A model generated the notes under the pieces. That model was given only the letters and a program-made list of their open reading frames with translations. It made no database searches and was not told the origin of the DNA. A stretch of 64,000 nucleotides of DNA from positions 1 through 64,000 of the forward strand of contig JAJFTV010000060.1 of NCBI GenBank assembly GCA_021372725.1. Direction: 5' to 3'. Source of the DNA: Chloroflexota bacterium (GTDB lineage Bacteria; Chloroflexota; Anaerolineae; Anaerolineales; Anaerolineaceae). Both the position numbers and the translations under genes were made by a program. Below are positions 12,544 to 47,351 of the stretch, one piece after another. Each line of letters opens with the position of its first letter. The first letter of the stretch is position 1.

Positions 12544-12735
12544 GCTGACAGTTTCCTTAATCATAAAATAATTTCAAATGAATGAATTGATTAATCATAC
12601 CACTGCCAGAAATCCATCAAATAAATGCAGTCATTTCACAGGTAATCAAACACGTTTCTCGTCGTTTTAGCCATGACAATGGAGGATAATTCCAAAAGGT
12701 TATCGGCCAAAACAGATTTCGAACCTTTTTCAGCA

Positions 12736-25619: not shown

Positions 25620-26339
25620 TCAGATCCGGGAGGATAGATTTAACAGGTTTTTTACTTTTTCAAATACCTCGGCGATGGAAAGATGCTCTGTATCGATGAT
25701 AATCGCATCATCGGCAGGTTTCAACGGAGCGTAGAGTCTGCTGGAATCTTTTTCATCTCTTCCCCTTAAAGACGATAATACCTCCTCGTATCGAACGGCT
25801 CTTCCGGCACCGATCTCTTCCTGATAACGGCGACGGGCCCGTTCTTCCAGAGATGCTTCCAGATAAATCTTTAAATCCGCATCCGGGATCACCACCGTAC
25901 CGATATCTCTGCCGACCATGACAACTTTGCCGCGTTTGCTTATATTGCGTTGATGTACGGTCATGGCTGTTCTTACGCCTGGATAAGCCGATACGAGCGA
26001 AACAAACTGGTTTACCCGCGCCGTACGCAATTCCTGCGTGACATCTTCACCATTGACCAGAACATCAAATTTTCGACCATCATTTTTGGATGGCGGCAGG
26101 ACATCAATCAAAATATCCTCCGCAAGTTGGGTAATGATTTCCTCATTCTCCACAGAGCCAAATCGCCTGAGTCCTTCCAGGGTCACCGCCCGATACATGA
26201 CGCCTGTGTCAAAATAGAGATATTTCAGGTAATCAGCCAGCAGCTCAGCGATAGTGGATTTCCCCGAAGCGGCGGGGCCGTCAATGGCAATACGGCTTGG
26301 ATATTTATTGTCGGGGTCAGTTGGTTGGCAGCAATTCAT
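25620..26339 (-). CDS. cmk: Cytidylate kinase
   Basis: 239 residues. It phosphorylates CMP/dCMP with ATP in nucleotide metabolism; cytosolic. P-loop IDGPAASGKST (19-29), FDTGVMYRAVTLEGLR, VMVGRDIGTVVIPDADLKIYLEASLEERARRR and the acidic lid with RDEKDSSR are all standard for bacterial Cmk. The N-terminus is about 14 residues longer than usual (CCQPTDPDNKYPSR). The start codon lies 23 bp inside the end of the GT-C gene upstream, so it is translated at the end of the glycosyltransferase operon. This is an unusual partner; cmk is more often next to rpsA or plsC. Confidence 0.95.
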   Translation of the reverse strand: MNCCQPTDPDNKYPSRIAIDGPAASGKSTIAELLADYLKYLYFDTGVMYRAVTLEGLRRFGSVENEEIITQLAEDILIDVLPPSKNDGRKFDVLVNGEDVTQELRTARVNQFVSLVSAYPGVRTAMTVHQRNISKRGKVVMVGRDIGTVVIPDADLKIYLEASLEERARRRYQEEIGAGRAVRYEEVLSSLRGRDEKDSSRLYAPLKPADDAIIIDTEHLSIAEVFEKVKNLLNLSSRI

Positions 26340-28038
26340 TGGCTTCGTACCCAGGAAATTGATCTACTCTTACCCAAAGGATGATCGATTTATCAATATA
26401 GGGCGTTTCGCGCACGAAAAACCACCGAAACCATCCCCAGGTGTCCAAATCGTCCCAGACAGGCTCCCGGGAAAGAATGAAATCCTGACCGGCATACTGA
26501 TTTTCCAATAAGAGCTGTTCGGATGAATTCGTAATGACCATCTCGGGATCAAAAGTTGCCGGTAAAACCTGGACCTGTTTGATATTATCATTCATCCTTA
26601 ACGACCATTCCAATGCTTTCGAATCGATACCGGAAATTAAGACCGACGGTTGATTGCCGGTTCCAATATTCCAGCGCTGGTAATCCGCCAGTGTTTTCGT
26701 AAACAGATCCTCATCGACAAAATTGTTCGAAAGCCAGACCTCCTGCTTAAGTTCCGCCTGCGATGTAAGAATATTCCAGATTGTTGAGATATGGTTGGCA
26801 AATAATAAAATGAAAACGGCTCCAAATAATGCCCTGGTAGCGGTACTCACCGACCATTCCCATACCGTAAGACCGGCAGCGAGAATAATGATCAATAATG
26901 AGCCTAAAATACTGACTATGCGCAGTTGCATTGAAGTATTGTCAACAACTGAGCCGGTGAAAATCCCTTTTAAATTCATCCCGCTAAAGACGAAAGCGAT
27001 CAGAATGATTGCCAAAAGTCCAAAATACGGTATTTTCTCCACATCGTCCAGTGAATAATCGGCCAGAATATATTTGCCCAGTAACGTCCATAAAGGTATG
27101 ATCATCCAGGGGAAAAGAGAAAATCCCCTGGCAGGATACAGGAGAATAAGAATTAATGATGCCAGAGACCAGAACGAGAGAACAACGATTATGGGATCAC
27201 GGCGCTGAAAAGCGATCACAATAGCGACAATTCCAAGCAGCACCGGAAGCGCTTCGTAAAAAATCAAACTCCATAATGTTGTACTGATCGACATGGCCTG
27301 AGGCTGAGACCAGCCTTCGACAAAAGCAGCTAAACCTGAAAAAAGACCACCCAGGCCTTCCGGGATCGTCAGGAATACAGAGAAAACCAGGAATGCGGTG
27401 ATGCCAAAACCGGTCAAAAAATGTTTCCACCTGAAATTCCATCCATCCTTTTCTTCCATCTGATGGTCATTTTGATTTTCAGTTTTGCCTGTTTTTCGAA
27501 ATGCAAAATAACCGGCCCCGGTTAAAATGGAAACGGATAATCCAAACCAGACCGATGGCCCCACCAGAAGTGCCAGAGCACCAAAGATTCCTGCCAGGGC
27601 TGATCGGCCGCTGACAAGAAATCCCAATGCAAACAGGAAAAATGTGATGCCAAATATCGAGCCGTCGGCCATTCTGGAAGTTATGATCAGGCCGGGATCG
27701 ATAGCAAGTCCGAATGCCAATAACAGAGCAGGCAAATCGCCCAGATGCTTCTTGTACAAAATCGGGGTGAATACGATGAGGGAACCCACGATGGCAGGCA
27801 AAAAACGAGCCCAAAACTCGCTGGCTTTTAGAAAATAAAACAGCACAGATGTCAACAGCACATACCCGGTTTGCGCGCCGAAAATTACATCCAAACCTCT
27901 CGATAAATGAAATGCGTTGATTGCCGCAGCAGCTTCACTCTCCGATAAAGGAGATATCCCCAACTGATAAAAGTGCTGAATTATGGCGAGGCAAAAAATT
28001 GCTGCATAAAGCGCAATTTCAACAGTCCTTTTTTTCAA
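26317..28038 (-). CDS. GT-C-like polytopic membrane protein
   Basis: 573 residues with about 12 hydrophobic segments. After the first span it has LGISPLSESEAAAAINAFHLSRG, which matches the acidic outside-loop position (D/E-E-A) of GT39/ArnT-like GT-C enzymes, and later WARFLPAIVGSL. A soluble C-terminal part (about 440-570) ends the protein. Such enzymes take a sugar from polyprenyl phosphate and transfer it outside the membrane; donor and acceptor are not known. The start is a TTG in a TTGA overlap with the stop of the DUF2298 gene upstream, with AAGGAGA about 10 bases before it; no better start exists nearby. It overlaps cmk by 23 bp. Confidence 0.7.
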   Translation of the reverse strand: MKKRTVEIALYAAIFCLAIIQHFYQLGISPLSESEAAAAINAFHLSRGLDVIFGAQTGYVLLTSVLFYFLKASEFWARFLPAIVGSLIVFTPILYKKHLGDLPALLLAFGLAIDPGLIITSRMADGSIFGITFFLFALGFLVSGRSALAGIFGALALLVGPSVWFGLSVSILTGAGYFAFRKTGKTENQNDHQMEEKDGWNFRWKHFLTGFGITAFLVFSVFLTIPEGLGGLFSGLAAFVEGWSQPQAMSISTTLWSLIFYEALPVLLGIVAIVIAFQRRDPIIVVLSFWSLASLILILLYPARGFSLFPWMIIPLWTLLGKYILADYSLDDVEKIPYFGLLAIILIAFVFSGMNLKGIFTGSVVDNTSMQLRIVSILGSLLIIILAAGLTVWEWSVSTATRALFGAVFILLFANHISTIWNILTSQAELKQEVWLSNNFVDEDLFTKTLADYQRWNIGTGNQPSVLISGIDSKALEWSLRMNDNIKQVQVLPATFDPEMVITNSSEQLLLENQYAGQDFILSREPVWDDLDTWGWFRWFFVRETPYIDKSIILWVRVDQFPGYEANELLPTN

Positions 28039-30644
28039 GGTAGCGTCTCTCCTTCGATATTCTGGTAAATACTTTCAGGAACTTCAAATATTCTAACCGT
28101 ATCATTTTCATAGACGATTCCAAGATTTCGGATGAATTTCTCTTCATTGACGTGATAGGTATTGTTTTCATAACTGCCAATGTAAATATAGTTTACACTG
28201 TATTTTTGAAGCAAGGCCAATGTTTCATCCCAGTTATTGCTCTGGTAGATCTGCTTGATATCCTCTTTACGGCTTCCCATTTCATCGTAACCACCACGCC
28301 ATTGGCTCTCGTGACCCGGCCATCCCAACACGGTGGACAGCCCGCTAAAGGTGGAGATTCTCGCATATCCGGAATAGCTGCCTCCCACGGCTTCCAGGAT
28401 GACTCCATCATCAGCCTCTACCAGCCATTCGATTGCCTTCATATCATCCGGCGAATACTGTTCGATATGCTGCGCTCCGTTGAGTGAGAGTGACTGCAAA
28501 TCAATGCCCTTTACTTTCATGCTTAACCCAAACCAGGGATAGGCCAGACACATCAATAACACCACCGACCATAGAACTCCAAAAAGAGATTTTTTCCAAC
28601 TCGTCAATGATTTCCATAACAACACAGAAACTGCCGCGGCAGCGATGCTCCAAAGTATCCAGGTCTGGAAATAGAATTTGAATATGGTATTGATACGCCA
28701 GCCAAACTGGTCACGCAGGTAGAAAAATTCAGGGAAGATGACCAGCCCAAGTCCCAGCAGAATAAGCAATAATATAAATGCGTTGTTTCCGGCGACATGT
28801 TCCTGATCACTCTGCGAGGGTTTCTTACGGGCAGAAAGTAAACCCCACACCAATACTACCATGATGCCTGCCGTCAACCATGTTCCCGGTTGAGTGACCC
28901 GCAGCTTGACGGAGGTCCAGATATCGGCCGGGCTGGTGATGCCCTGTACGCTGTAAAAGAGATTGCCCCATTGAATCAGTTTTTCTGCCAATGGATTGGC
29001 AGCGCCATCTCCCAACATACTGTTTCCGATGACCGGCAGCAATACACCCAGCCAACCCAGCAAATAGGACAAAAGTCCAAGCCCAACCAAAACCAGTGCA
29101 GCAAATTTGATGCCGCGCCTGAAAATAAATTTAATATTGCCCTTGTTAACCTGCGAGAACAACCACCAGCAGAGAGGAAACAGAAGCGGCAGGAACATCA
29201 CCCAAAAATGGATGCCGCGGGTGAAGAAAAACAGGCTGGGCAGCAATCCGCCTGCCTGTGATGAAAAACCAACATAGAATGGCAAGAATAATAAAACGCC
29301 AACGATACCCATGAGAATACAAAACGTGAGGAATTCCAGTAATCTCTGCCATCCCCAGCCCAGTGCTTGATATCGTTGGTATACATATACTGCACCAAAC
29401 AACCCGACATAAATTGGAAAGTCCCAGGTATTCAGGAATCCAAGGCTGCCGGTAATCAATGCCGCTATCCAGAAACTTCCATTGGAGAGCAGCGGAAAAA
29501 TTGTCAGATTTTGCAAAGGGATGGTTTTCCCGTGAAACCACTCCCCGGCCCACTCAAACACTGAAATGCCAGGCTGATTTTCTGATCGGAAGGTCAGGAA
29601 AAAATTGAAAGCAAATGAAATTGCCAGAATGACAAACGGCATGGACAGTACATGCGGATGGAGATCTGCCAGATAATATGAAAAGAAAGGAAATTCATCG
29701 ATGATTTCTCGTGATTGACCTGAGGCCGTGTAATCCTGTAACACGCGTGAGGCACGCCACCACCAGATGCCCGCCGGTCTTTCAGGTATCCAGGAGTACG
29801 GGCTCGTTGGCGCCTGGACGATCTCCTGAATATCCAGCCAGCTCCAAAACCTGGATTGAAGCGTGCCCTCCGCCGTGGTTTGCCAGAACAATCCCCGGCT
29901 GTGAAGCATTTCCAGAAAACCTTCCATGTTGCTGACAATCAACACATAAAGCGGCCCCAGCAGCGACCATACCAGATTGGTTGATTTCCCGTCCTGTTCG
30001 TTTGCCGTTTCCCTTGACCGTCCCAATCCTGAAATCAGTGAATAGACCAGGCTGAAGGCTGCCACGCCCGTCAATGCAAACCACAAAGCGCTGGCCAGGT
30101 TAAATCCCACCCAGGCCGTCGTGCCTGTGATTTTGATCAACATGGCTGCCATGACATAGCCGAAGTAATAGTATGAAATGGCATAACCGGATAACCACGG
30201 GTCCTGGGGTGGGAAACTGTCTGCACGCAGGATGGAGGTGATAAACGCCAGCTCCATCGGCTTCTCGGTACCAGATACCTCGGGGGCGGTGGCACGGATA
30301 AACGTCCACAGTGAAAACAGGACCAGGAATACCAACTCGGTGAATAGTATCACCCGCCGATGATCTTTGATCCAATCACGCAGTTCCTGCCAGCGTCCTT
30401 TCCGCAGGCAAATCGCGCTGATGATAACCAGCACAGCCCCTGCCAGCAGCAGACCCCCGGGCGTATTCTGGCTCAAACCGAGCATGTTCATCAGCCAGAA
30501 AAAATATCCCCATACCAGCAAACCCAGAACTTTGGAAAGGCCAAACCCACGGTCTTTCAACCTCGAAAAGACGCAAAAAGTGATCGGGAAGGTCAGCCAG
30601 CCCAGACAAAAAATCACCAGGTACCAAAGGAGAAAATCGATCAT
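28035..30644 (-). CDS. DUF2298 (Chlor_Arch_YYY) membrane protein
   Basis: 869 residues with 15 or more hydrophobic segments. The family signature is complete: GTEKPMELAFITSILRADSF, then FPPQDPWLSGYAISYYYFGY with the YYY triplet at 158-160. Farther on come DEFPFFSYYLADLHPHVLSMPF and, near the C-terminus, FYLRDQFGWRINTIFKFYFQ. The family occurs mainly in Chloroflexota and archaea; its chemistry is unknown, though the architecture resembles GT-C glycosyltransferases. The C-terminal soluble part ends with a Tyr-rich segment. It shares a 4-bp stop/start overlap with the next gene and starts 18 bp after the giant fusion gene. Confidence 0.9.
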   Translation of the reverse strand: MIDFLLWYLVIFCLGWLTFPITFCVFSRLKDRGFGLSKVLGLLVWGYFFWLMNMLGLSQNTPGGLLLAGAVLVIISAICLRKGRWQELRDWIKDHRRVILFTELVFLVLFSLWTFIRATAPEVSGTEKPMELAFITSILRADSFPPQDPWLSGYAISYYYFGYVMAAMLIKITGTTAWVGFNLASALWFALTGVAAFSLVYSLISGLGRSRETANEQDGKSTNLVWSLLGPLYVLIVSNMEGFLEMLHSRGLFWQTTAEGTLQSRFWSWLDIQEIVQAPTSPYSWIPERPAGIWWWRASRVLQDYTASGQSREIIDEFPFFSYYLADLHPHVLSMPFVILAISFAFNFFLTFRSENQPGISVFEWAGEWFHGKTIPLQNLTIFPLLSNGSFWIAALITGSLGFLNTWDFPIYVGLFGAVYVYQRYQALGWGWQRLLEFLTFCILMGIVGVLLFLPFYVGFSSQAGGLLPSLFFFTRGIHFWVMFLPLLFPLCWWLFSQVNKGNIKFIFRRGIKFAALVLVGLGLLSYLLGWLGVLLPVIGNSMLGDGAANPLAEKLIQWGNLFYSVQGITSPADIWTSVKLRVTQPGTWLTAGIMVVLVWGLLSARKKPSQSDQEHVAGNNAFILLLILLGLGLVIFPEFFYLRDQFGWRINTIFKFYFQTWILWSIAAAAVSVLLWKSLTSWKKSLFGVLWSVVLLMCLAYPWFGLSMKVKGIDLQSLSLNGAQHIEQYSPDDMKAIEWLVEADDGVILEAVGGSYSGYARISTFSGLSTVLGWPGHESQWRGGYDEMGSRKEDIKQIYQSNNWDETLALLQKYSVNYIYIGSYENNTYHVNEEKFIRNLGIVYENDTVRIFEVPESIYQNIEGETLP

Positions 30645-30662
30645 CGCAGAAGACTCATTTCC

Positions 30663-33600
30663 CTAATTTGTATCCAATACCTTGTAGATCGTCGTATCTT
30701 CGGAATTGTAAACTTCTGTCCATAAATCCTGGTTCCATTCCTCAAATTTAGCCATTCCGGTCAACCCATAGTAAGCCTTTTCAAGCTGACCGACGATAAT
30801 ATACTGCACATCATATTTCTCCAGGAAGTCTTTCGTAAACTGCCGATCCAGTGTGCTGTAAAAATTATCAATATCCGCGATCCGATCCGTCACCCAGGTC
30901 GAAGAAACCGTGCCGCGCTGCTGGCGTTGGTGCCAGTTCCAGCCTACCACACCGGGGAGACCGGTGTAAATGGTATACCGGCTGCCCCACCGGTATTCAG
31001 GTGTATTGGCTTCGACGATAACCGGTGTCCCTTCAACGTTTTCCTGCATCCACAATATCGCCTCGTAATCCTGGTTCAAATCCATATTGACATCACTATC
31101 CCAATATTGGGAAGTCGCCATGTAGGCCATGCCATCGAGAGTGTGGGGTGCATCCACACTGATCCGGTCACGGATTTTATCGATGCCGCCGAAGACGGTA
31201 AACAGCGCGGCCGCACCAAACAATATGGCCAATGAGATCTGCCAGAATTTACGCCAGCCAGGCTGCCATTTCCCACTGACCGCCGGGAACACCCAGATCA
31301 ATGAAGCGGCGGCGCTGACCGAGAAAAGTGTCCAGGCTTGCAGATAGAATTTGAACACCGTATTCATCCGGCCCAAATCCCCTTCCAGGACGATCAACTC
31401 CACCGCCAGCGTAAGAACCAGCGCAGTGCCGACCATGAACAAAACCACCCGCTTCATATCGTCAATCCCAGGCCGCAGCAGCAGGATCAAGGCCCACGCG
31501 GCGCCCAACAGTGCGATCCAGCCCATACCAATATGCAATATGATTGTGGCGATGATCGCACAAAACAGGATCACAACACCTGCCTGAATGACAAATTTAT
31601 ACGGCCGTAATTTGGCCAAAGCAGAAACCGGGGTTTCAGCCAGCCACTGACGGGTTTCCCAGAACATCCAGGAGAAGATCAAAAAGAGGAATAATCCCCA
31701 ATGTGTGAGATAGGACCAGGCCGGGGAACGTTCGCCTTCCCAGATTTGAACCGAATTGTAACTCTGGCCATACCATTTCGCAAAAGGAGCATAAAGGAAG
31801 AAAGTGAGAAATACCAGGCCGCCTGTTACCATGACGGCCAGAATGATCCGCTTCCAGAGCGGAGCAATATTGATCTTTAGCTTAATCCCGCTGCCACTTC
31901 GAAGCAGTTTATAAAGAACGGCCACCGCGGCCAGGGTGAGATAGGTGGGTGTATCCCAGGTATTGGTAGGCCGCAGCGCACCGATGATAAGCGCACCAAA
32001 CAGGATGACAACCCCCATCTCCAGCCACTTTTTACCGGCCGGCTGTGCTTCATCCAGAAATTTGAATTTGATGAAAGATACCGCCCAACAGAGCGCCAAA
32101 ACGGTGATTGGCAGGGAAATGAGATGGGCGTGAAGATCCGCATAAAGGAAGGTGAACAAGGGGAATTCGGTAATCGGCTCGTTGGGGTAAACACGGCTGG
32201 GTATCCAATACCAATCCCCTGCACCATAAGGCAGACTTGCACCCTGGATATAATTTCCCACACCCTGCACCGTCCAAACGAGGCGGGTAAAGATGTTTGA
32301 CCCGTCGATATTCCCACCCGGTGCAGCAAGCTTCATGATGCCATGCCAGATCATCCGGATTGTGCCAAGGTTCCCGATGAAAATCATCAAAACGGTTGTG
32401 ACAATTCCCCCAATAAACCCTTTTGGATCCCCTGACAGCCAGCCCAGGGACTTCACTTTGTTCTGGCTATTTTTTATTGTGGAGGATATCGATCCTGTAA
32501 TAGTGCTGCCGAGGGAAAATGCACCCATCGCCAGAAAAGCCATCAAGGTTGGAAGGATGAAGTTATAGGCCACCGATGGTACAATCCCCAGCCATTTGAC
32601 CGGCACTCCCACCAACACAAATCCATAATAATAATAATTGATGTACCCGCCTTCATACCAGGGATCATACGGAGGGAAGGTTCTGCTCTTCAATATCGCG
32701 TTGAAATACGAGAAATCCATCGGCTTCTCACCCCCCTTGTAAGGGTGCCAGAGATCCGGATTACCCAAACGGATGAGAAGATCAAAACCAAATACAGCCA
32801 GGAACAACAGCTCCACCAGCAGGAAATACCGCCATTTCTCCCGGAATTCGGCAATGATCTCCTCTCGATATCGGCGGAAGATGAAAACATTCGCCAATAC
32901 CAAAACTGCGAAGGAGATACTGATGGTCAGCCGGGTAAAGGCGACACCGGATGAGCCCAGAATCCACACCATGAAGGCTAAGATCATCAACCCGAAAAGT
33001 TTGGTCAGTGGATAGCCGCGGTCATTCAGACCCCCAAAAACCAACCGGGTCAATGGATATACGCACCAGCCGATGATTGTGATCACCAGATACCACACGA
33101 TCAATCCCAACCAGGGATAACGATTCACCAGGGAGCTGCGGTCAAATAACTCTGACCAGGTTCCTTCCTTCTGCTGTTGCGCCCAGCTTTCTTCTGAAAG
33201 AACCAGATTTCCCTTATATTCGGTGGCTTCCTTGGGCGTCAGATGGATGGCTTTGGTTAGATCCACCGCACCCAGAATTTCCTGTACCTTTTCGGATGAA
33301 TAATCCTCTGTTTTGCGAAAAATGAGTACCTTGGGATGGTCATAGACCGTGAAGGCTTCTTCGGCGAATTGCGTATTAATGTGGATCGAACCCAGCACAG
33401 GATCGGATTGGAAAACCTGCACCAGTTCAAAACCCAGTTCCCCCTTGAACATACCCGGTTCGGCAACGGAATAACACCAGGTAATTTCCTTTTCATCGGG
33501 GCAGCCAATCAAGGCCCGGTAATAGGCCGTCGTCAGCGGATAACGTTCCGGCACCCGTACTGTTGTTCCCCACTGCCGGTTTGAGCTGATAAAAATCGTA

Positions 33601-35999
33601 TCGGCCTGATCCAGGTTCAGGGTAAAGCGGTCAAGCTTGTCCTGGTTATCATCCCAGTACATCTCAAAATTCAATTCGGTTCGATACAGTCCATTGTAAT
33701 AATCAAAAACGTTGTTATCGTACAGGTTATAGGGCAGAGAGTCATCCCATGATGATTCGAGCACCTGTTTGCTGCCATAAAAGGCAATATCGCCTTCACC
33801 CTCCAACACCCGAATTTGCACCGTAATATACTGATCCGGTGTAACCGGGATCGGCCTGGAGAATTGCACCAGATAATCATCTCCGCGCGCGTCACCCTGC
33901 CGGGCAAATTTACCTTCCAGGGTTGTCGAATTTACAACCGGCTGTCCATCAACGGTCTGGATGATGCTTACTTCCAACGTCTTTACAGAATCTGATCCGG
34001 TCCAATCCACCACATGCGGGAAGTAGACCTCTGATAACATGCCCTCGACCGATGGTCGGACGGTAATCATGCTATCGTTTCCGGTATTCAATAATTCCAC
34101 CGGCTCCAACAAAGCCTGTTTTAACTGGCGGGTTTCATTGAGATAGGTCAAAGTGATGGGTCCTGCCAGTTGAACCACACTGCCGGGCTCCATCACCTCG
34201 ATGTGCAAGTAATACGTATCGCCGGCATTTACCCATAAACTGGAATAAAAATCCAGGGAATATGAATTCCCGCGTGGATCATTGGCATCCACCGGAAAAT
34301 TGGATGAGGTGGTGGCAGATGACAATGCCGGGGTATCCTCACGCTGCGAGCTGATCCAGGCATTGAAATTAATCACACCGGTTTCGGTACTTTTTCCAAA
34401 CAGGTGTGAAAAATTGATACTGGAGAGAGATCCATCGTATTGGGCAACGAACTCCAGCACAACAGGTTTCTCATAGGTGGTATCGGTGGTCAACGCGTAC
34501 GATACCGGCTGGTTGAAGGTTTCCTCGTCCATCTCGATGTGCAGATTGATGGGGCCGGGAACATTTTGATAAATCCACTCACTGGCTGCGATGCGGGTGA
34601 CCGGCTTTGTATAGATCCGTGTGAAAGCGAATGCCCATGCAAATGTAGAAAGCAAAACAACAACTCCAAGAACACCCGCAATGATCTTGTTATAGGGCAG
34701 TTTTCGACCGGCAATTTTTGGCTTTAACGACCACACATACACTACCAGCCAGGCGGCAATGATCTCCAGCATGGCATAAATGGGCAGAAAATAGCGCATG
34801 CTGCTGGTGAAATTTAACGATTGCCAGACAAAATAAATCGCCGTCCAGCCCCATAAAAGCGCATGGTCAAACCATTCTCCCTTGAAAATCCTGTACCCCA
34901 TCCAGAGAAAACCGATACAGGCCAGCAGGCCCAATGGCAGTCCCAAACCCCATTTGACCATGTTTTCCAGGCCAAATGACAGCGGCCGGCGCGCCCATTG
35001 CAATGCGGGTGGTGAATCAACTTCGCCACTACTTTGCCCGCTCAGCTCAACCATGTTATCGACCCATTTCTGATTGGGAAGAATCCCCAGAAAACCCGGG
35101 CCGGTAAAAGCATAAGGCTGGAAAATGCGGAAGACAATGATACTGACGACCGCCGCCACGATCACGTTGCGGATGAGAAAAGGAAGGGAATTTTTACGTT
35201 CCTTCGGTGAAAACCTGACGAAATTCAACAAGACTGCACCGGGCAGAAGAATTGCCAGCGGAGCAACGCTAATCTTCGATGCCAGCGCCATCCCAAAAGC
35301 AATCCCAAACAGGATATACGGCGGCACAGTACCCCAGCGCGTCAAAAAAGAAAATACGATTTTTTCCGGCGTATCTTCATCGATATCGGCAAGTTGGGAA
35401 TAATCCTCAGCTTTGGTAAACCTTAATATTCGGACCGCCAGATAAAACGTCAACACCGAGAACAGATTGGCAAAAATATCCACCGTAAAATAATGAGATA
35501 GTTGTATCTGGAGCACCGAAAAAGCCGCGAAAGCCGCCGCCAGCAGGCTGACGGCTCTTTTACGATACAGGTTTTGCGCGATCATGTAGATCAGAACGAT
35601 CGTTATAAGGTCTGCTACTGCACTGACCGCCCTGCCTACCAGATAGACTTCACTGTAACCGGTCTTGCCTATCCATTCGGCGATATAGCGGACAGTAAAC
35701 AATGGCAGCGTGCCATAAACGTAAAAACCGTATCCACGGTTATGCGGGTTCAGGCTGGATTCGTCGGTATTGAAATACTCCCCCAACCCCTTGACTGGAG
35801 ATATTGAACTCTCCACCATGGTAAGAAAGCGCTCATCAGGATGAAGATGCTGATCTTCATCCCAATCCAGGCCGACAAATCTGAAGTACCCGCCCAGGAT
35901 CAGAATGACTACCAGCAAGAGATCCCAATACGACACCGATTTGCGGCGCTTGGTTTCTTCTTGTTTCAATGAGGTACCGGTTTCGATGTTCTCTGTCAT
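30663..35999 (-). CDS. Giant fusion: GT39-like glycosyltransferase plus DUF2298 membrane protein
   Basis: About 1778 residues from the ATG at 35999; a TTG at 36029 would extend it inside the previous gene. The N-terminal part (about 30-480) is GT-C/PMT-like, with GLDWDEDQHLHPDERFLT as the catalytic acidic loop. A large beta-rich extracytoplasmic region (about 480-960) follows. The C-terminal part (about 970-1778) is a full DUF2298 module, with GGEKPMDFSYFNAILKS, FPPYDPWYEGGYINYYYYGF (near 1120) and EFPLFTFLYADLHAHLISLP. The C-terminal module is paralogous to the separate DUF2298 protein downstream, suggesting tandem duplication followed by fusion. It probably transfers or remodels sugars at the outer face of the membrane; substrates are unknown. 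It sits 13 bp downstream of the preceding GT gene. Confidence 0.9.
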   Translation of the reverse strand: MTENIETGTSLKQEETKRRKSVSYWDLLLVVILILGGYFRFVGLDWDEDQHLHPDERFLTMVESSISPVKGLGEYFNTDESSLNPHNRGYGFYVYGTLPLFTVRYIAEWIGKTGYSEVYLVGRAVSAVADLITIVLIYMIAQNLYRKRAVSLLAAAFAAFSVLQIQLSHYFTVDIFANLFSVLTFYLAVRILRFTKAEDYSQLADIDEDTPEKIVFSFLTRWGTVPPYILFGIAFGMALASKISVAPLAILLPGAVLLNFVRFSPKERKNSLPFLIRNVIVAAVVSIIVFRIFQPYAFTGPGFLGILPNQKWVDNMVELSGQSSGEVDSPPALQWARRPLSFGLENMVKWGLGLPLGLLACIGFLWMGYRIFKGEWFDHALLWGWTAIYFVWQSLNFTSSMRYFLPIYAMLEIIAAWLVVYVWSLKPKIAGRKLPYNKIIAGVLGVVVLLSTFAWAFAFTRIYTKPVTRIAASEWIYQNVPGPINLHIEMDEETFNQPVSYALTTDTTYEKPVVLEFVAQYDGSLSSINFSHLFGKSTETGVINFNAWISSQREDTPALSSATTSSNFPVDANDPRGNSYSLDFYSSLWVNAGDTYYLHIEVMEPGSVVQLAGPITLTYLNETRQLKQALLEPVELLNTGNDSMITVRPSVEGMLSEVYFPHVVDWTGSDSVKTLEVSIIQTVDGQPVVNSTTLEGKFARQGDARGDDYLVQFSRPIPVTPDQYITVQIRVLEGEGDIAFYGSKQVLESSWDDSLPYNLYDNNVFDYYNGLYRTELNFEMYWDDNQDKLDRFTLNLDQADTIFISSNRQWGTTVRVPERYPLTTAYYRALIGCPDEKEITWCYSVAEPGMFKGELGFELVQVFQSDPVLGSIHINTQFAEEAFTVYDHPKVLIFRKTEDYSSEKVQEILGAVDLTKAIHLTPKEATEYKGNLVLSEESWAQQQKEGTWSELFDRSSLVNRYPWLGLIVWYLVITIIGWCVYPLTRLVFGGLNDRGYPLTKLFGLMILAFMVWILGSSGVAFTRLTISISFAVLVLANVFIFRRYREEIIAEFREKWRYFLLVELLFLAVFGFDLLIRLGNPDLWHPYKGGEKPMDFSYFNAILKSRTFPPYDPWYEGGYINYYYYGFVLVGVPVKWLGIVPSVAYNFILPTLMAFLAMGAFSLGSTITGSISSTIKNSQNKVKSLGWLSGDPKGFIGGIVTTVLMIFIGNLGTIRMIWHGIMKLAAPGGNIDGSNIFTRLVWTVQGVGNYIQGASLPYGAGDWYWIPSRVYPNEPITEFPLFTFLYADLHAHLISLPITVLALCWAVSFIKFKFLDEAQPAGKKWLEMGVVILFGALIIGALRPTNTWDTPTYLTLAAVAVLYKLLRSGSGIKLKINIAPLWKRIILAVMVTGGLVFLTFFLYAPFAKWYGQSYNSVQIWEGERSPAWSYLTHWGLFLFLIFSWMFWETRQWLAETPVSALAKLRPYKFVIQAGVVILFCAIIATIILHIGMGWIALLGAAWALILLLRPGIDDMKRVVLFMVGTALVLTLAVELIVLEGDLGRMNTVFKFYLQAWTLFSVSAAASLIWVFPAVSGKWQPGWRKFWQISLAILFGAAALFTVFGGIDKIRDRISVDAPHTLDGMAYMATSQYWDSDVNMDLNQDYEAILWMQENVEGTPVIVEANTPEYRWGSRYTIYTGLPGVVGWNWHQRQQRGTVSSTWVTDRIADIDNFYSTLDRQFTKDFLEKYDVQYIIVGQLEKAYYGLTGMAKFEEWNQDLWTEVYNSEDTTIYKVLDTN

Positions 36000-36012
36000 T
36001 CTAGCTCTGTGA

Positions 36013-38196
36013 TCACCCTTGAACGTCAACAGTCGTAGGGTCTGGCGGAACCAAGAGTATCCAAAAATCCTTGCCTGGCAGCTCGCTGGTATGCAGCCAA
36101 TAGGAACACTGTGGATACATGGCCTGTAAATCCAGAATCGACTGCTGATCTTCTGGCTTTATGATAAACAACTTTGCCCCTGTTTGCGAGAGTGTTTGAG
36201 AGAAATCCTCCGGCCAAAGGGCATAATCTTTATCCGGAAATCCGGCGTTGATGCCCACCAGACGGGTATCCACCCAATATGGGAAGGGCACCACATAGGC
36301 AGTGTCCCGGCTGCCAATGGTTGAATCGGCGAAACCGCGGATGATTTCCCCAATTTCAGATGTATTCCACGCCCCTGACATGAATTGCTGATCAAACTGT
36401 TTGAAAACCAGGTTATAGTCCTGGTTGATCGTTGTCAGCAAGAGAAAAATGCCCAGAACCGAAGCCAAAACTTTCCCATATACCTTATGCCATTTGACCA
36501 GCCGTGAGAGCACGTATTCCAACAGTATGGCGATCATGATAAAAACCGGTATCATTGCACCGCCTGTCCGGTTCAGCGACGGGTTTTCATCCGGAAAGGC
36601 AAGCGAGAGAATAGACGGCATCATCAGCAGCGGAATGGAGACGAGTAAAAATAGATCCACCCAATCATGCTTGCGGATATAACGGATGATCACGTAAACG
36701 ATGCTCAGGAAGAACAAGGCAGCCGGAACCACCGCCAATGCCGGACGGCCAGGTATGGAATGAACCCAGATCGAACCATTGTCCCAGAAAAACATGACAA
36801 GAGCTCTCCACAGGTTGGAAAAAAAGACCAAAATAGCCGGCTGAGTGTAGGCCTGTTCAAGGGTGCCCATGCGGGTGAGTGTGCGATAAAAGAACATATC
36901 CGGATCGTCCACCATGTAACGGAGCAGTGGGATGAAAACAAGCACGGCAACGAATGCCAGCACACAAAATGCAAACAGCACCTGTTTTCGATGACCCCTG
37001 GACTGCGGATGAAGCATATAAAGAATGACCGCCGCCGCCACTACAAATGGAACAAATCGCATTGGGCTGTATCCGTGCAGACCCAGGCCCAAAAACAGGC
37101 CCGACAGAAGAAAATCATTCCACGACCGTCTTTTTAATCCGCGGATCAGAAAATACAGAACCGGTGCGGCAAAGAGTGGGTAGAGGGGAAAGCGCAGGCC
37201 AATCCGCGAGATCACGTTGGGCCAGTAGGCGATGCCAGTAAACAAGAATGCGAATAAACCTGTCCACCGCCCGCCCAACTCTTTACCAAGCAGATAGATA
37301 AAGGGCAGCGCCAGCAGGCCTGCCAGTGCAGTCCCGATTTTAAGGCTCATGAACGACAGACCGGTACCGAAGATCTTCGAGACGGCGGCTGTCAGATACA
37401 TCTGGATGAACTCGCGCCCCGTATTGCGGGGAAAATAGATCCAGTGATCTCCATTCAGCACATCGGCAACATCCAGCAGTTTTTCGGCATGATCACTGAA
37501 CATTTCTCCCGGTACCTCATCCAGCCGATAGAAACGGAAGAATACCACCAACACGATGGATGCCAACAGGATGATTGTCCAGGGAGTAATCGTGAGCTTG
37601 ATGCGAGGGTGTTTGAGAAAATTCAGCAGCCTGTCGGAGAGCCTGGGATGGTCAGGTTTATCCTGCCAGAAAGCATAAATCCCCAGGCCGATGGACGTCA
37701 GCCAGGAAACAGTATTGATCAGGTTGAACTGGTGGCTGGAAAAAGTCAAAAACGCCAGAAACCCAAGCACCAGGCTGGCGATTAATGCCTTGCTTTTCAC
37801 TCGCACAACCGGAAACGCTGAAGACGGTGCAGGCTGGATATCGGCAGGCTCGATATTGGAAGATTTGCGAAGCACATAAACCAGAAACATGACCAAAGAG
37901 ACAGCATAAGCGGCTATGGCAAGCCCGGTTTGGCGTGCCTGCGGCTCCAGCAGCGCCTGGGAAATGATGGCAATCAGAACAGAAAGCACCAACAGCCACG
38001 GAAAACGGTTTTGGGATGCGGGAATACCGATATTTTCAGACGCAGATTCTTCTTCCGTATGATCGGGCGGGTTCTGAACTGCCGAAGCCAAAGCATTCCC
38101 GTCAGCCAACTCATCCTCGTAAGGAATAAGAATCTTTTCCCTTTGCCAGGGATTTAAGATGGATTTCAAATAATCCAGTACGCTGGGTTCTTTCAT
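36013..38196 (-). CDS. GT39-family (PMT/ArnT-like) membrane glycosyltransferase
   Basis: 727 residues. A hydrophilic N-terminal ~65 residues, then about four spans (about 68-190) that look like an added module. The main GT-C unit starts with FFRFYRLDEVPGEMFSDHAEKLLDVADVLNG: the acidic E-x-F-S-D-H-A loop after the first span is typical for GT39. YLFPRN-like Y-F-P-R-N-T-G-R-E-F-I-Q-M-Y and RIGLRFPLYPLFA follow. A soluble C-terminal tail (about 610-727) resembles those of its neighbours. It is the first gene of the giant membrane-protein run; a candidate TACAAT -10 lies at 38236-38241 on the minus strand. The sugar donor is expected to be polyprenyl-phosphate linked. Confidence 0.8.
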   Translation of the reverse strand: MKEPSVLDYLKSILNPWQREKILIPYEDELADGNALASAVQNPPDHTEEESASENIGIPASQNRFPWLLVLSVLIAIISQALLEPQARQTGLAIAAYAVSLVMFLVYVLRKSSNIEPADIQPAPSSAFPVVRVKSKALIASLVLGFLAFLTFSSHQFNLINTVSWLTSIGLGIYAFWQDKPDHPRLSDRLLNFLKHPRIKLTITPWTIILLASIVLVVFFRFYRLDEVPGEMFSDHAEKLLDVADVLNGDHWIYFPRNTGREFIQMYLTAAVSKIFGTGLSFMSLKIGTALAGLLALPFIYLLGKELGGRWTGLFAFLFTGIAYWPNVISRIGLRFPLYPLFAAPVLYFLIRGLKRRSWNDFLLSGLFLGLGLHGYSPMRFVPFVVAAAVILYMLHPQSRGHRKQVLFAFCVLAFVAVLVFIPLLRYMVDDPDMFFYRTLTRMGTLEQAYTQPAILVFFSNLWRALVMFFWDNGSIWVHSIPGRPALAVVPAALFFLSIVYVIIRYIRKHDWVDLFLLVSIPLLMMPSILSLAFPDENPSLNRTGGAMIPVFIMIAILLEYVLSRLVKWHKVYGKVLASVLGIFLLLTTINQDYNLVFKQFDQQFMSGAWNTSEIGEIIRGFADSTIGSRDTAYVVPFPYWVDTRLVGINAGFPDKDYALWPEDFSQTLSQTGAKLFIIKPEDQQSILDLQAMYPQCSYWLHTSELPGKDFWILLVPPDPTTVDVQG

Positions 38197-38581: not shown

Positions 38582-39385
38582 TCAAGCACTTTTATGGGTA
38601 ACGTAAAAGGAATAGGATCCCCTGGGTTGCTCTTTCGGCTCCAGATAGTACGGTCGGAGCAGCTTTTCCAGCCACCCCAGGTTCCAGCGTGTGGGGGCCA
38701 GGATCCAGCGTCCCGCCAATCTTTTTGCCACCAGCGAAGGCACACCGAAATAATGACCCCATTCCAGCACACCCAGGGCATCCGGTGAAAAATAATCCCA
38801 TACCTGGTCGATGATGAGATGATTGCGGGCTAAACGCTCACCCCATACCTGTTGTGAATCACAGTGATGATGGCGTGAAATCTTGTTGAACCATTTGCGA
38901 TAGCCGGCAGCCAGTTTTTTCCATCCCAGGCGCTCCAGAAAGCGTGATATCGATAAATTATGTGTGAAGTTCTGGTTGGGAACACAAAAAATAAAACTGG
39001 CTCCCGGTTTCAGCACCCTGGCCGTCTCGGTAATCACCATATCCACATCCGGAATATGCTCCAGAACCGAATTGCTGATCACGGTATTGAAGGTATCCTC
39101 CGGAAAGGGCATTTTCCCACCATCCGCCTGTAAGACCAGCTTGTAGGCGCCTGTTTTGGCAGCCAGACCGAGTTGTTTTCGCCAGGGATCCATCCCTGCC
39201 TCAATCTTCCTGTCAAAGGCAATCGAAGCAAAATTGCCATCTCCACACCCCAAATCGAGCACAGGCTCCACAAGTGACAGATCCTGGTAAAACGTCGCTT
39301 CCACTGCCCGTAACAGAGCCCGGAAATACGGCAAATCCCGCAGATTTAACCACAAGTAATCTTTTTGTTGTTTTGAATCCATCAT
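38582..39385 (-). CDS. Class I SAM-dependent methyltransferase (Methyltransf_11 type)
   Basis: About 267 residues from the ATG at 39385, which places the start 28 bp after the upstream glycosyltransferase stop; a longer frame overlaps that gene and has no homology-like N-terminus. Motif I is PVLDLGCGDGNFAS (about 41-54). FNTVISNSVLEHIPDVDMVITETARVLKPGASFIF is the motif IV-VI stretch typical of ubiquinone/menaquinone-type and sugar methyltransferases. The acceptor cannot be read; neighbours (GT4, sugar epimerase) suggest a glycan or glycolipid intermediate. It is the last gene before the 385-bp gap. Confidence 0.85.
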   Translation of the reverse strand: MMDSKQQKDYLWLNLRDLPYFRALLRAVEATFYQDLSLVEPVLDLGCGDGNFASIAFDRKIEAGMDPWRKQLGLAAKTGAYKLVLQADGGKMPFPEDTFNTVISNSVLEHIPDVDMVITETARVLKPGASFIFCVPNQNFTHNLSISRFLERLGWKKLAAGYRKWFNKISRHHHCDSQQVWGERLARNHLIIDQVWDYFSPDALGVLEWGHYFGVPSLVAKRLAGRWILAPTRWNLGWLEKLLRPYYLEPKEQPRGSYSFYVTHKSA

Positions 39386-39413
39386 GATTTTTCGGGTAAA
39401 TCTCTTACGTTTT

Positions 39414-40589
39414 TCATTGGTTGTTACGGCTGATGTCGGCTGCAATTTCGTCAAACAAATCTTCATAAGCAGCCGCAACCGTATCCGGTCGATACTGGAT
39501 GGCAATCTCTTCCGCATCCTGGTGATATGCATCGGGGCGCGATACTATTTCTTTCACCGCGTCCGCCAGAGCAGCAGAATCACCGATCGGGATCACCTTG
39601 CCCATCTTGTGCCGTACAGGCGGCACACGCACTCCCGGCAAATCGGACGCAATTGATGGAACCCCGTTGATCATGGCTTCGATCTGTACCAGGCCAAATG
39701 CCTCGGTTGAATTCAGGCTGGGGATCACCAGCACATCGATGTTGGGGTAAAAGCAGGCGATTTGTTGGGGGTTAAGATTTCCCAGAAACTGCCAATGACC
39801 GCTGTCAATATAACGTTGAATCTGCGGGTTCAACCGTTCAAAATACTTCTCCTCCCCATAAATATTTTTGTATTCACCCGCGAACCAGACTTTTGCCTGG
39901 GGATACTGCCCGAAAATGGAAGGCAGTGCAGCCAATAACACTTCAACCCCTTTTTCGGTTGCAAAACGGCTTGCCATGCCGATGACCGGTTTTTTTTCAT
40001 CCGGATTATACTGAGCGCGAAAGCTTTCGATTTCTTCTTTGGCGACTGCCGGCAGCTCAACAGGCGGCGGTATGATGCGCACCTTGTCCAGATACTTCTT
40101 TAACATTTTGGAGTGGTCGGCATAATCCTGTGTATAAGTGACAAATCTATGCGTAAATTGCGATGTCAGCCGGTTCATCACATTGACGGCTACATTGGCC
40201 GTTTTGCTGACCAAACCTTTGGGCATTTGCAAGTCACAATGATAGGTGACAACGGTGGGTTTCTTGAGAAGCCTGCCCCGCAAGGCAATCCCGGCCGCGT
40301 CGAATTGAGGCAAGTGCAGTTGGATGCAATCGTTCTCCAATGCCAGTCTGCTGGCAAGCGGGCCAAATGTGGGCATGATAACACCCTTGCTGATGCGAAA
40401 AAGCACCGGGGCCCGAATCACATTAACTCCATCCATCACCTCACGGGTTGGTAAATGAGGGTCGTATTGTGAGGTCAATATGGTCACTTCGTGGCCACGC
40501 TTGACCCAGGCTTTGGCCAGCCGTTCAGCATAGATTGTCAATCCGCTGGTATGGGGGCGGTAATAAGTTAAAACTGAAAGGATTTTCAT
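39414..40589 (-). CDS. GT4-family glycosyltransferase
   Basis: 391 residues, GT-B fold. The N-terminal Rossmann domain has YYRPHTSGLTIYAERLAKAWVKRGHEVTILTS and VVTYHCDLQMP. The C-terminal donor domain has GMASRFATEKGVEVLLAALP and the E-x7-E motif in STEAFGLVQIEAMINGVPSIASDLPG. It uses a nucleotide-activated sugar in the cytoplasm, typically building a lipid-linked or envelope glycan. No membrane segment is present. It lies 6 bp downstream of the epimerase gene and is followed by the methyltransferase, forming a compact sugar-modification operon. Confidence 0.93.
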   Translation of the reverse strand: MKILSVLTYYRPHTSGLTIYAERLAKAWVKRGHEVTILTSQYDPHLPTREVMDGVNVIRAPVLFRISKGVIMPTFGPLASRLALENDCIQLHLPQFDAAGIALRGRLLKKPTVVTYHCDLQMPKGLVSKTANVAVNVMNRLTSQFTHRFVTYTQDYADHSKMLKKYLDKVRIIPPPVELPAVAKEEIESFRAQYNPDEKKPVIGMASRFATEKGVEVLLAALPSIFGQYPQAKVWFAGEYKNIYGEEKYFERLNPQIQRYIDSGHWQFLGNLNPQQIACFYPNIDVLVIPSLNSTEAFGLVQIEAMINGVPSIASDLPGVRVPPVRHKMGKVIPIGDSAALADAVKEIVSRPDAYHQDAEEIAIQYRPDTVAAAYEDLFDEIAADISRNNQ

Positions 40590-40595
40590 CCAATT

Positions 40596-41627
40596 TTATC
40601 CACGGAATAATGAGCGGTTTTCTTGAACCCAATAAAACAACTCACTAATGCCCATCTTCACATCAATTTGCGGTGACCAGTCGAGCTCTCTTTTTGCTTT
40701 GCTGATATCGGAGACATAAACCAGTTGATCACCGGGTCTCCAGCCTGCCCATTTTACCGGGATCTTTTCACCCAACAGCCGTTCCAGTATCGGTGCGAAC
40801 TGTTTCCAAATGGAGATGGTATTGGCAGCCCCACCGCCGATATTGAAGACCTGGCCGGCGCAATGGTCGATCCGCTCGATGCAGTGGTCATAGGCATTCA
40901 GCAAATCACTGACAAAGAGAATATCTCTCACCTGCTTCCCATCGCCGTAAATGGTGATAGGCTTCCGTAATATGGCTGCGATGACGAACCAGGCAACCCA
41001 GCCCTGGTCTTCAATTCCAAACTGCCGCTTGCCATAGATGCAGCTTTGCCGTAATACAACAGTCGGCAGGCCATAAATACGATAATAATCCCGCGTATAC
41101 TGGTCTCCGGCTCCTTTTGAGCAGCCATAAGGGGAGTGAAAATCCAGCGGATGTTTTTCAGAAATCCCGCCCGGAAAATCCTTGTAACGATAGTGGTCGG
41201 TTTCCTGGATTACTTCTACATCTTCCATCCCGCCGTAAACCTTGTTGGTGGAAGCAAATAGGACGATGGGCTTCCTGGGCGATTTTCTGGCTGCTTCCAG
41301 CATATTAAATGTCCCATTTGCATTGATTTCAAAATCTTCACGCGGATCTGTTACGGAGGTGGTTACAGCAACCTGTCCGGCAAGATGAACAACCACATCC
41401 ATGCCGGCAACCGCTTTTTCCAACAAGGTTTCGTCACGCACATCTCCCTGAACCAGGTGAAAAGACTCTTTACCGTGCTGTTTGCGAAGCCAGTCAAGAT
41501 TGTTGTCTGCTCCCTTGCGGGACAGGTTGTCATAGATATGTACTTCCTCACCGCGCCCGAGCAGTTTGTCAACATAATTGGATCCAATAAATCCCGCACC
41601 GCCTGTGACCAAATATTTTAATTTCAT
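40596..41627 (-). CDS. NAD-dependent sugar epimerase/dehydratase (CDP-paratose 2-epimerase-like)
   Basis: 343 residues, extended SDR family. The NAD-binding GGAGFIGS is at 9-16, the catalytic FASTNKVYG at 124-132, and the YxxxK pair is Tyr167/Lys171 in SPYGCSKGAGDQY. The segment YGKRQFGIEDQGWVAWF is characteristic of the CDP-paratose/tyvelose epimerase branch rather than of GalE. It works on a nucleotide sugar in the cytosol; the exact sugar is uncertain. It overlaps the upstream membrane protein gene by 4 bp and precedes GT4 by 6 bp. Confidence 0.85.
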   Translation of the reverse strand: MKLKYLVTGGAGFIGSNYVDKLLGRGEEVHIYDNLSRKGADNNLDWLRKQHGKESFHLVQGDVRDETLLEKAVAGMDVVVHLAGQVAVTTSVTDPREDFEINANGTFNMLEAARKSPRKPIVLFASTNKVYGGMEDVEVIQETDHYRYKDFPGGISEKHPLDFHSPYGCSKGAGDQYTRDYYRIYGLPTVVLRQSCIYGKRQFGIEDQGWVAWFVIAAILRKPITIYGDGKQVRDILFVSDLLNAYDHCIERIDHCAGQVFNIGGGAANTISIWKQFAPILERLLGEKIPVKWAGWRPGDQLVYVSDISKAKRELDWSPQIDVKMGISELFYWVQENRSLFRG

Positions 41628-42694
41628 TCTTCACACCTTGCTACCGGGTTTTCAGTTTCATCCTTTTGTTTCATTTTTCTTGAGAGATTGAACAAACTAT
41701 CCAAGGATTGTTTTTCCTTTATCAATCCATAAACCCCAAAAATGGCGGTAATAGCAATCTGGAGGAAATGCATGACGACCGCGTACGCCAGGGCATTGGA
41801 GTAGGAGGTGCCCAATACCTTGAGGGCAGCAACAACCGAAGCCTCAAATACACCCAACGCAGCCGGTGCAGATGGAATCGCAATTCCCATGGCCAGGATT
41901 GAGTTGACAAACACTCCCCACCAAAACTGGGGTGCCGGGATGATGGAAAACATCATCACATAGTACATCAGCACTGCCACACCCCATGATGAGCCAATCG
42001 CTAAAAGACACACCAAAAACTGGCGAAAATCGGTCAGGATGGAAAAACCGCTCAAAAAAGTTGCAATTTGCGGCTGGATATATTTGCTCACCCAGGGCCA
42101 CTTCTTTCCAACTTTCTGAATCCATGCCTGGATCACCTCATTTTTTCTGGCCATGATATAGAGTGCAAACAAACCGCAAACAACCAGCACGAGCACCACA
42201 ATGGCCACCGTTTTTGCCCAGCTCATTTCCAGTACCAGGGGTAAAACTGCCAGCAGCAGGGCGGCAGCAAAAAATAAATCAAACGCCCGTTCAATGACAA
42301 TTCCGGAAAGAACTTTGGTCACTCCCAGCCCGCTGGATTGACCCAATACAACCGCTTTGCCTATTTCACCGGCCCGCAGCGGCAGGATATTATTCAGCAG
42401 GTACCCCACGTTGATCGCCCGAAAAGTCTGTGCCATCCCTGCTTTTCCGGAAAGGATTACCTTCAAAGCCAATGCACGCAGAATCAACCAGAAAACAACA
42501 AAAAACACTCCCGGGATGATATAAATTAAATTGATTGTCGAAAACGCAGCAGAAAGCTCCTCGAAGCTGACCAGGTGAAATATGGCATAGAATGCGATAG
42601 CACTGATGACCACCCCAGGCAGCCAGCGGCCAGCTTCACCCAGGTGTGATTTACGGGGTCGTGGTTCAGACCCATTGGAGCCTGTATTTTTCAT
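41624..42694 (-). CDS. LPG-synthase-TM / UPF0104 family membrane protein
   Basis: 356 residues with about eight membrane spans and a charged C-terminal tail. The conserved [22 protein letters not shown] followed by [13 protein letters not shown], and [17 protein letters not shown] further on, are the signature of the membrane domain of lysylphosphatidylglycerol synthases and related proteins such as AglD-like partners. The aminoacyl-transferase domain of MprF is absent. Such stand-alone proteins are often in glycosylation clusters and may move or modify lipid-linked intermediates. Four-base overlaps join it to lepA upstream and the epimerase downstream. Confidence 0.85.
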
Positions 42695-46356: not shown

Positions 46357-46367
46357 GGCATTCGATT

Positions 46368-47348: not shown

Positions 47349-47351
47349 CCT

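What the first reader, a model, noticed from the sequence alone, without database searches (positions are those of the whole stretch)
25620..38196. Run of giant GT-C/DUF2298 membrane proteins, including a 1778-residue fusion
Four consecutive genes encode polytopic proteins; one joins a GT39-like unit, a large beta-rich extracytoplasmic region and a DUF2298 module, and the next gene is a stand-alone DUF2298 paralogue. DUF2298 has no known chemistry. The fusion to a glycosyltransferase unit argues that DUF2298 acts on the same polyprenyl-linked sugar substrate or its product. The four genes are tightly spaced and cmk ends the operon.
Basis: partly seen in the sequence, partly recalled or inferred. 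Interest (0 to 1): 0.7.

Follow-up and report, generated by a model that had tools for sequence, protein, structure and literature searches.

The report
DUF2298: unrecognised GT-C glycosyltransferase family
Four neighbouring genes in an Anaerolineae (Chloroflexota) genome encode sugar-transferring membrane enzymes, and the "domain of unknown function" among them (DUF2298) is predicted to have the fold of lipid-linked-sugar transferases such as the oligosaccharyltransferase, so its long-unknown chemistry can now be tested directly.

Summary
On the minus strand, 25620-38196, four tightly spaced genes encode polytopic proteins and cmk follows: PMT_2 protein (727 aa), fusion (1778 aa), stand-alone DUF2298 (869 aa), Agl23/TIGR03663-like protein (573 aa). 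The fusion is not a local oddity: in 60 named loci with a fused gene (mostly Anaerolineae) the stand-alone gene is beside it in 59, usually in the order GT4-methyltransferase-PMT_2-fusion-DUF2298-Agl23-like-cmk. NCBIfam already names the family (TIGR03662). New here: a confident AlphaFold2 model (pLDDT 94) of the DUF2298 protein matches GT-C glycosyltransferases (ranks 1-39; STT3 Z 14.0; next fold Z 5.1), not a transporter. Invariant E127, D327-x-H329-x-H331, R650-x-N652 and K656 sit where GT-C enzymes carry their active site; D-x-H-x-H recalls AglB's D161-x-H163. The fused N-terminal half is a second GT-C enzyme (AglB Z 29.9) without sequence similarity to DUF2298, so the fusion is two GT-C enzymes in one chain. 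Fused and stand-alone DUF2298 modules are ancient paralogues with intact motifs. Most likely: paired or sequential extracytoplasmic transferases using polyprenyl-linked sugars. Donor and acceptor are unknown; no activity has been shown.

The parts
30663..35999 (-). Fusion gene, 1778 aa: GT-C enzyme 1 + beta-rich region + alpha/beta domain + DUF2298 (GT-C enzyme 2)
   Evidence: conserved in named loci
34560..35972 (-). N-terminal GT-C membrane unit of the fusion (model residues 10-480), invariant P54-D55-E56 motif in the first outer loop
   Evidence: (AfAglB Z 29.9; yeast STT3 Z 28.2, rmsd 4.1 over 374; Pmt4 27; ArnT 26)
33210..34550 (-). Extracytoplasmic beta-rich region (484-747) and alpha/beta domain (748-930) of the fusion
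30678..33113 (-). DUF2298/TIGR03662 module of the fusion (paralogue clade F)
28035..30644 (-). Stand-alone DUF2298/TIGR03662 protein, 869 aa (paralogue clade S); GT-C core from about residue 86, C-terminal globular domain 725-856
30264..30266 (-). Codon of E127, first-outer-loop acidic residue, invariant in 105 modules
29652..29666 (-). D327-x-H329-x-H331 motif at the EL2/TM4 junction, invariant in 105 modules; proposed metal site
26317..28038 (-). Divergent Agl23/TIGR03663-type protein, 573 aa; its relatives keep an acidic [ST][DE]xEA first-loop motif (this copy SESEA)
36013..38196 (-). PMT_2 (GT39-like) protein, 727 aa, SDHAEK first-loop motif
25620..26339 (-). cmk, (d)CMP kinase; last gene of the run
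38582..39532 (-). SAM-dependent methyltransferase, conserved upstream neighbour
39414..40589 (-). GT4 cytoplasmic-type glycosyltransferase, conserved upstream neighbour
40596..41627 (-). SDR, sugar-nucleotide dehydratase/epimerase type
41624..42694 (-). LPG_synthase_TM (PF03706) membrane protein

Best explanation
DUF2298 is a family of GT-C (GT-C-A type) glycosyltransferases. Each module takes a polyprenyl-phosphate- or polyprenyl-pyrophosphate-linked sugar at the outer face of the cytoplasmic membrane and transfers it to a glycan, lipid or protein acceptor. A site made of E127 and D327-x-H329-x-H331 (probably metal-binding) and R650/N652/K656 (probably holding the lipid phosphate) does the chemistry. 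The fusion joins two complete GT-C enzymes in one chain; the stand-alone DUF2298 protein is its ancient, co-inherited paralogue and works next to it, as a partner subunit or as the next enzyme. The GT4, SDR and methyltransferase genes build glycan or precursors inside the cell, and the Agl23-like protein moves or uses the lipid-linked sugar. Shown: gene order, conservation, paralogy, predicted fold. Inferred: catalysis, metal, side of the membrane, order of steps. Unknown: sugar and acceptor.
For: Model of the 869-aa protein: pLDDT 94.0, pTM 0.95. Foldseek PDB: the seven hits with E <= 1e-3 are all GT-C: STT3A, DPY19, AftA. VIA: ranks 1-39 all GT-C-A: STT3 Z 14.0 (472 residues, rmsd 7.5), ALG12 13.6, AftA 12.5 (491 residues, rmsd 5.2), DPY19 12.3, Pmt 12.2, AglB 11.8, ArnT 11.0; next row FtsW 5.1; C-terminal domain against AfAglB-S2 C-terminal domain Z 9.5, rmsd 2.8 over 112. 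In 105 modules from both paralogue clades R117, E127, R300, E317, D327, H329, H331, N405, R650, N652, K656, E751, Y757 never vary; by the model's helices most of these lie in outer loops or at their helix ends. AfAglB uses D47, R154, D161, H163, E360 (PMC7226087). Conserved glycan locus in 60 named loci: stand-alone DUF2298 59, PMT_2 49, Agl23-like 49, methyltransferase 42, GT4 41, cmk 40. Co-occurrence with TIGR03663: 188 genomes both, 8 and 4 one only, 101 neither. F and S modules lie on the two sides of a branch with support 99, apart from one truncated F gene. A DUF2298 gene on a Pseudobutyrivibrio plasmid lies among polysaccharide genes.
Against: No sequence match to any solved structure, and profile comparison finds no sequence kinship even with the GT-C unit it is fused to, so homology rests on a predicted fold. 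Z 12-14 is moderate for a helical protein and the top GT-C families are tied. No WWD motif of oligosaccharyltransferases (0 of 105). Co-occurrence is partly clade structure. A GT-C-like fold does not prove transferase activity: Agl23, which belongs to the companion family, translocates a lipid-linked oligosaccharide in liposomes (PMC11182771).
Confidence: 0.72

Rival explanations
1. DUF2298 is a GT-C-fold lipid-linked-sugar flippase/scramblase or accessory subunit, not a transferase; the true transferases are the PMT_2 units beside it.
For: Its most constant companion family, TIGR03663/Agl23, is reported as a flippase for hexose-P-dolichol, and purified Agl23 translocates M5GN2-PP-dolichol in liposomes (PMC11182771); co-occurrence in 188 of 196 genomes.
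Against: Thirteen or more invariant polar residues, an intact D-x-H-x-H motif in both paralogues and a C-terminal domain like that of AglB point to chemistry rather than transport.
Confidence: 0.15
2. A sub-hypothesis on the donor: DUF2298 uses a polyprenyl-phosphoryl pentofuranose (ribose or arabinose), like the mycobacterial arabinosyltransferases.
For: A decaprenyl-phosphate phosphoribosyltransferase relative lies in the same window (45487-46356, over two NCBIfam cut-offs; E 1e-46 to PDB 8j8j) and such a gene co-occurs with DUF2298 in 183 of 196 genomes against 7 of 105. AftA gives the longest alignment at the lowest rmsd among the top rows (491 residues, 5.2 A) and, unlike STT3, aligns from residue 18, so also over part of the N-terminal helices.
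Against: AftA is tied with other GT-C families in Z; the phosphoribosyltransferase is on the other strand, in a separate gene cluster, and close to DUF2298 in only part of the order; no DprE1-type oxidase (PF04030) in the window's genome; co-occurrence is partly clade structure.
Confidence: 0.18
3. A sub-hypothesis on the reaction: DUF2298 is an en-bloc transferase that moves a polyprenyl-pyrophosphate-linked oligosaccharide onto protein or another envelope polymer, in place of an STT3-type oligosaccharyltransferase.
For: STT3 is the top structural match and the C-terminal domain resembles AglB's; D-x-H-x-H sits where oligosaccharyltransferases have the metal-binding D-x-[DEH]; 100 genomes of the class hold no clear STT3, only weak hits of at most 43 bits over parts of the profile.
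Against: No WWD sequon-binding motif (0 of 105); Z values tied; acceptor unknown.
Confidence: 0.2

Closest known systems
TIGR03662 Chlor_Arch_YYY / Pfam PF10060 DUF2298
   Same: Both modules are full-length members far over the cut-offs
   Different: None; these are members. The family has no assigned chemistry in the libraries used
STT3 / AglB / PglB oligosaccharyltransferases (PF02516)
   Same: GT-C-A fold, acidic residue after TM1, D-x-H at the EL2/TM4 junction, C-terminal alpha/beta domain
   Different: No sequence similarity found, no WWD motif, three extra N-terminal helices, a third motif residue H331
AftA and other mycobacterial arabinosyltransferases
   Same: GT-C-A fold; AftA aligns 18-857 at 5.2 A over 491 residues
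   Different: No sequence similarity found; EL1 motif is E-K-P-M, not the D-D recalled for that group (own knowledge)
PMT / ArnT type (PMT_2)
   Same: The N-terminal half of the fusion and the 727-aa protein belong with these
   Different: DUF2298 itself has no PMT_2 match
Agl23 / TIGR03663
   Same: The 573-aa neighbour is a distant relative, in the usual position after DUF2298
   Different: 44 bits against a cut-off of 126; [ST][DE]xEA in place of HHDES

Membership tests
GT-C glycosyltransferase superfamily (DUF2298 module) | GT-C-A fold | tested here: met
   the 39 best PDB matches by VIA are GT-C-A; next Z 5.1. Predicted model, not a solved structure
GT-C glycosyltransferase superfamily (DUF2298 module) | Conserved acidic residue in the first outer loop | tested here: met
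   E127 in 105 of 105, 8 residues after the core's first helix 96-119
GT-C glycosyltransferase superfamily (DUF2298 module) | Transfer from a polyprenyl-linked donor | not testable with these tools
   needs an assay
STT3/AglB oligosaccharyltransferase | Match to PF02516 | tested here: not met
   no PF02516 match in either protein at E 0.01
STT3/AglB oligosaccharyltransferase | WWD motif in the C-terminal domain | tested here: not met
   0 of 105
STT3/AglB oligosaccharyltransferase | D-x-[DEH] metal motif at the EL2/TM4 junction | tested here: inconclusive
   D327-x-H329-x-H331 is invariant and placed there by the model's helices, but no coordinates to measure
TIGR03662 Chlor_Arch_YYY | Score over the curated cut-off of 300 bits | tested here: met
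   510 and 472 bits
TIGR03663 / Agl23 (573-aa neighbour) | Score over the curated cut-off of 126 bits | tested here: not met
   44 bits, E 1e-11; a distant relative, not a member
PMT_2 / GT39-like (N-terminal half of fusion) | PMT_2 score over 26.1 bits and an acidic EL1 motif | tested here: met
   30.1 bits, partial, 131-209; D55-E56 in 56 of 56; fold
   transporter rows only at Z about 4 or Foldseek E above 0.02 with low TM-scores

The most novel reading that the evidence does not exclude
DUF2298 is a separate, metal-dependent en-bloc glycan transferase family, using a D-x-H-x-H site, that does in Chloroflexota and some archaea what STT3-type oligosaccharyltransferases do elsewhere, and that is run as a pair of ancient paralogues, one of them fused to a second GT-C enzyme.
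Probability: 0.17. Interest if true: 0.85.

Novelty: new variant of a known kind. Interest (0 to 1): 0.5.

Why it matters
DUF2298 (TIGR03662) is listed as of unknown function; only two papers in the searched library even name it. Placing it in the GT-C fold, with named candidate catalytic residues, turns 'unknown membrane protein' into an enzyme hypothesis that a point mutant and a glycan analysis can settle. It also points to a conserved glycan locus in Anaerolineae, a group whose envelope chemistry is poorly known. Whether Pfam already places DUF2298 in its GT-C clan could not be checked here; if it does, the fold assignment is less new, and the active-site and locus anatomy remain.

Tried and rejected
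PDB sequence searches with the DUF2298 and N-half profiles: nothing meaningful. Profile-profile comparison of the two GT-C halves: first only their shared overlap, then no similarity. Rejected: degenerate, inactive neighbours; the first-loop acidic residues are kept in the P3-like, P4-like and TIGR03663 families. Rejected for this genome: an arabinose donor by the DprE1 route (no PF04030). Literature searches found no characterised DUF2298 protein and nothing useful on Anaerolineae wall sugars. Promoter and terminator scans were not informative.

Full report
Observation. The run of genes is as described. On the minus strand lie a 727-aa PMT_2 protein (36013-38196), the fusion (30663-35999, 1778 aa from ATG; 1788 from an upstream TTG), a stand-alone DUF2298 protein (28035-30644), a 573-aa protein (26317-28038) and cmk (25620-26339). 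Spacing is 13 nt, 18 nt, a 4-nt overlap and a 23-nt overlap. Pfam and NCBIfam confirm DUF2298/TIGR03662 twice and PMT_2 twice; the 573-aa protein is a distant relative of TIGR03663, 'flippase activity-associated protein Agl23'. The genome has no other DUF2298 copy.

Is it special to this genome? No. 201 of 301 Chloroflexota genomes carry DUF2298 over the cut-off, most with two copies. Eighty named loci, nearly all Anaerolineae, were fetched. They hold 59 fused and 84 stand-alone full modules, and the fused gene is usually just upstream of the stand-alone one. Across 60 loci with a fused gene the usual order is (LepA-LPG_synthase_TM-SDR)-GT4-methyltransferase-PMT_2-fusion-DUF2298-Agl23-like-cmk: stand-alone DUF2298 in 59, PMT_2 49, Agl23-like 49, methyltransferase 42, GT4 41, cmk 40. 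Some contigs end inside the locus, so these are lower bounds. In other families of the phylum two DUF2298 modules are joined in one chain of 2500-2900 aa. I recall that the NCBIfam notes for TIGR03662 and TIGR03663 already mention tandem copies and co-occurrence; this was not checked here.

Two paralogues. A tree of 59 modules separates the fused (F) from the stand-alone (S) modules with support 99, and each side follows host lineages. FastTree was used and two long branches meet on the S side, so deep order is unsure. One F-clade module (L103, a rumen MAG) stands without the N-terminal unit.

Fold of DUF2298. From 105 modules AlphaFold2 gave a model of the stand-alone protein with pLDDT 94.0 and pTM 0.95. 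Foldseek finds seven PDB chains at E <= 1e-3, all GT-C (STT3A, DPY19, AftA). VIA ranks 39 GT-C-A chains first: STT3 14.0, ALG12 13.6, AftA 12.5, DPY19 12.3, Pmt 12.2, AglB 11.8, ArnT 11.0, PglB 9.5; the next is FtsW at 5.1. The core starts near residue 86; residues 1-85 are three further helices. The C-terminal domain (725-856) matches the AglB-S2 C-terminal domain at rmsd 2.8 over 112 residues. Z values within the GT-C families are tied, so the fold does not choose the subfamily.

Active-site anatomy. In all 105 modules R117, E127, R300, E317, D327, H329, H331, N405, R650, N652, K656, E751 and Y757 are invariant. Reading the model's helices back from a C-terminal domain taken to be outside: E127 follows the first core helix by eight residues, D327-x-H329-x-H331 precedes and opens the helix 330-352 after a long second outer loop, N405 lies in an outer loop between two membrane helices, and R650-K656 opens a late helix on the outer side. 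This resembles oligosaccharyltransferases, where AfAglB has D47, R154, D161, H163 and E360 (PMC7226087). The WWD motif is absent (0 of 105).

The fused unit. The N-terminal 995 residues gave a model with pLDDT 87.9. Its membrane part is a clear GT-C enzyme (AfAglB Z 29.9, yeast STT3 28.2 at 4.1 A over 374, Pmt4 27, ArnT 26), with invariant P54-D55-E56. A beta-rich region and an alpha/beta domain follow. The two GT-C halves share no detectable sequence similarity. So the fusion is two GT-C enzymes in one chain, with a third (stand-alone DUF2298), a fourth (PMT_2) and a probable fifth (Agl23-like; family link only, not folded here) in the neighbouring genes.

Context. DUF2298 and TIGR03663 occur together in 188 of 301 genomes, one alone in 8 and 4, neither in 101. 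Agl23 of Haloarcula is described as a flippase for hexose-P-dolichol and moves a lipid-linked oligosaccharide in liposomes (PMC11182771). A decaprenyl-phosphate phosphoribosyltransferase relative lies in the same window, and such genes co-occur with DUF2298 in 183 of 196 genomes against 7 of 105. Both counts were made from the printed tables and are partly clade structure. The window's genome lacks a DprE1-type oxidase. No clear STT3 was found in 100 genomes of the class.

Mechanism. Best supported: extracytoplasmic transferases with polyprenyl-linked donors, paired or acting in sequence on one envelope glycan. Fold and conservation are computed results; catalysis, metal and membrane side are inferred; donor and acceptor are open. 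Rivals are a flippase or accessory role; sub-hypotheses are a pentofuranose donor and en-bloc transfer in place of STT3. The stated confidences of the last two overlap with the main explanation.

Verdict. A confirmed observation, an ordinary arrangement for its phylum, and a supported and testable answer to what DUF2298 is. Interest 0.5.

Noticed in passing
45487-48152 (+): Decaprenyl-phosphate phosphoribosyltransferase (UbiA family), mevalonate kinase and isopentenyl phosphate kinase in a row: an archaeal-type mevalonate branch beside a polyprenyl-phosphate pentose enzyme.
   Followed up: partly
53645-54751 (-): Mannose-1-phosphate guanylyltransferase-like protein (TIGR01479, 297 bits, below cut-off): possible GDP-mannose supply.
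   Followed up: no
L103:8345-10810: F-clade DUF2298 module without the N-terminal GT-C unit in a rumen MAG; its relative Flexilinea flocculi (L087) has the full fusion. Real loss or an assembly effect.
   Followed up: partly
L044:6097-13593, L050:4890-12935: Chains of 2500-2700 aa with one N-terminal unit and two DUF2298 modules, followed by yet another stand-alone DUF2298 gene.
   Followed up: partly
L037:7195-8156, L038:10721-11329: Small frames of 117-203 aa between the fusion and the stand-alone DUF2298 gene in several Anaerolineales; not identified.
   Followed up: no
G000:C164:13256-13849 (own genome, outside the window): A TIGR03663 match over the cut-off in a 1164-aa frame, so the 573-aa window protein is a divergent second relative.
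   Followed up: no
10840-12564 (-): 574-aa protein whose C-terminal half is uridine kinase-like; N-terminal half not examined.
   Followed up: no
NZ_CP054708.1 601111-601905: Halarchaeum plasmid codes for a DUF2298 C-terminal part near the end of the circular record with no gene listed there; reason not settled.
   Followed up: partly
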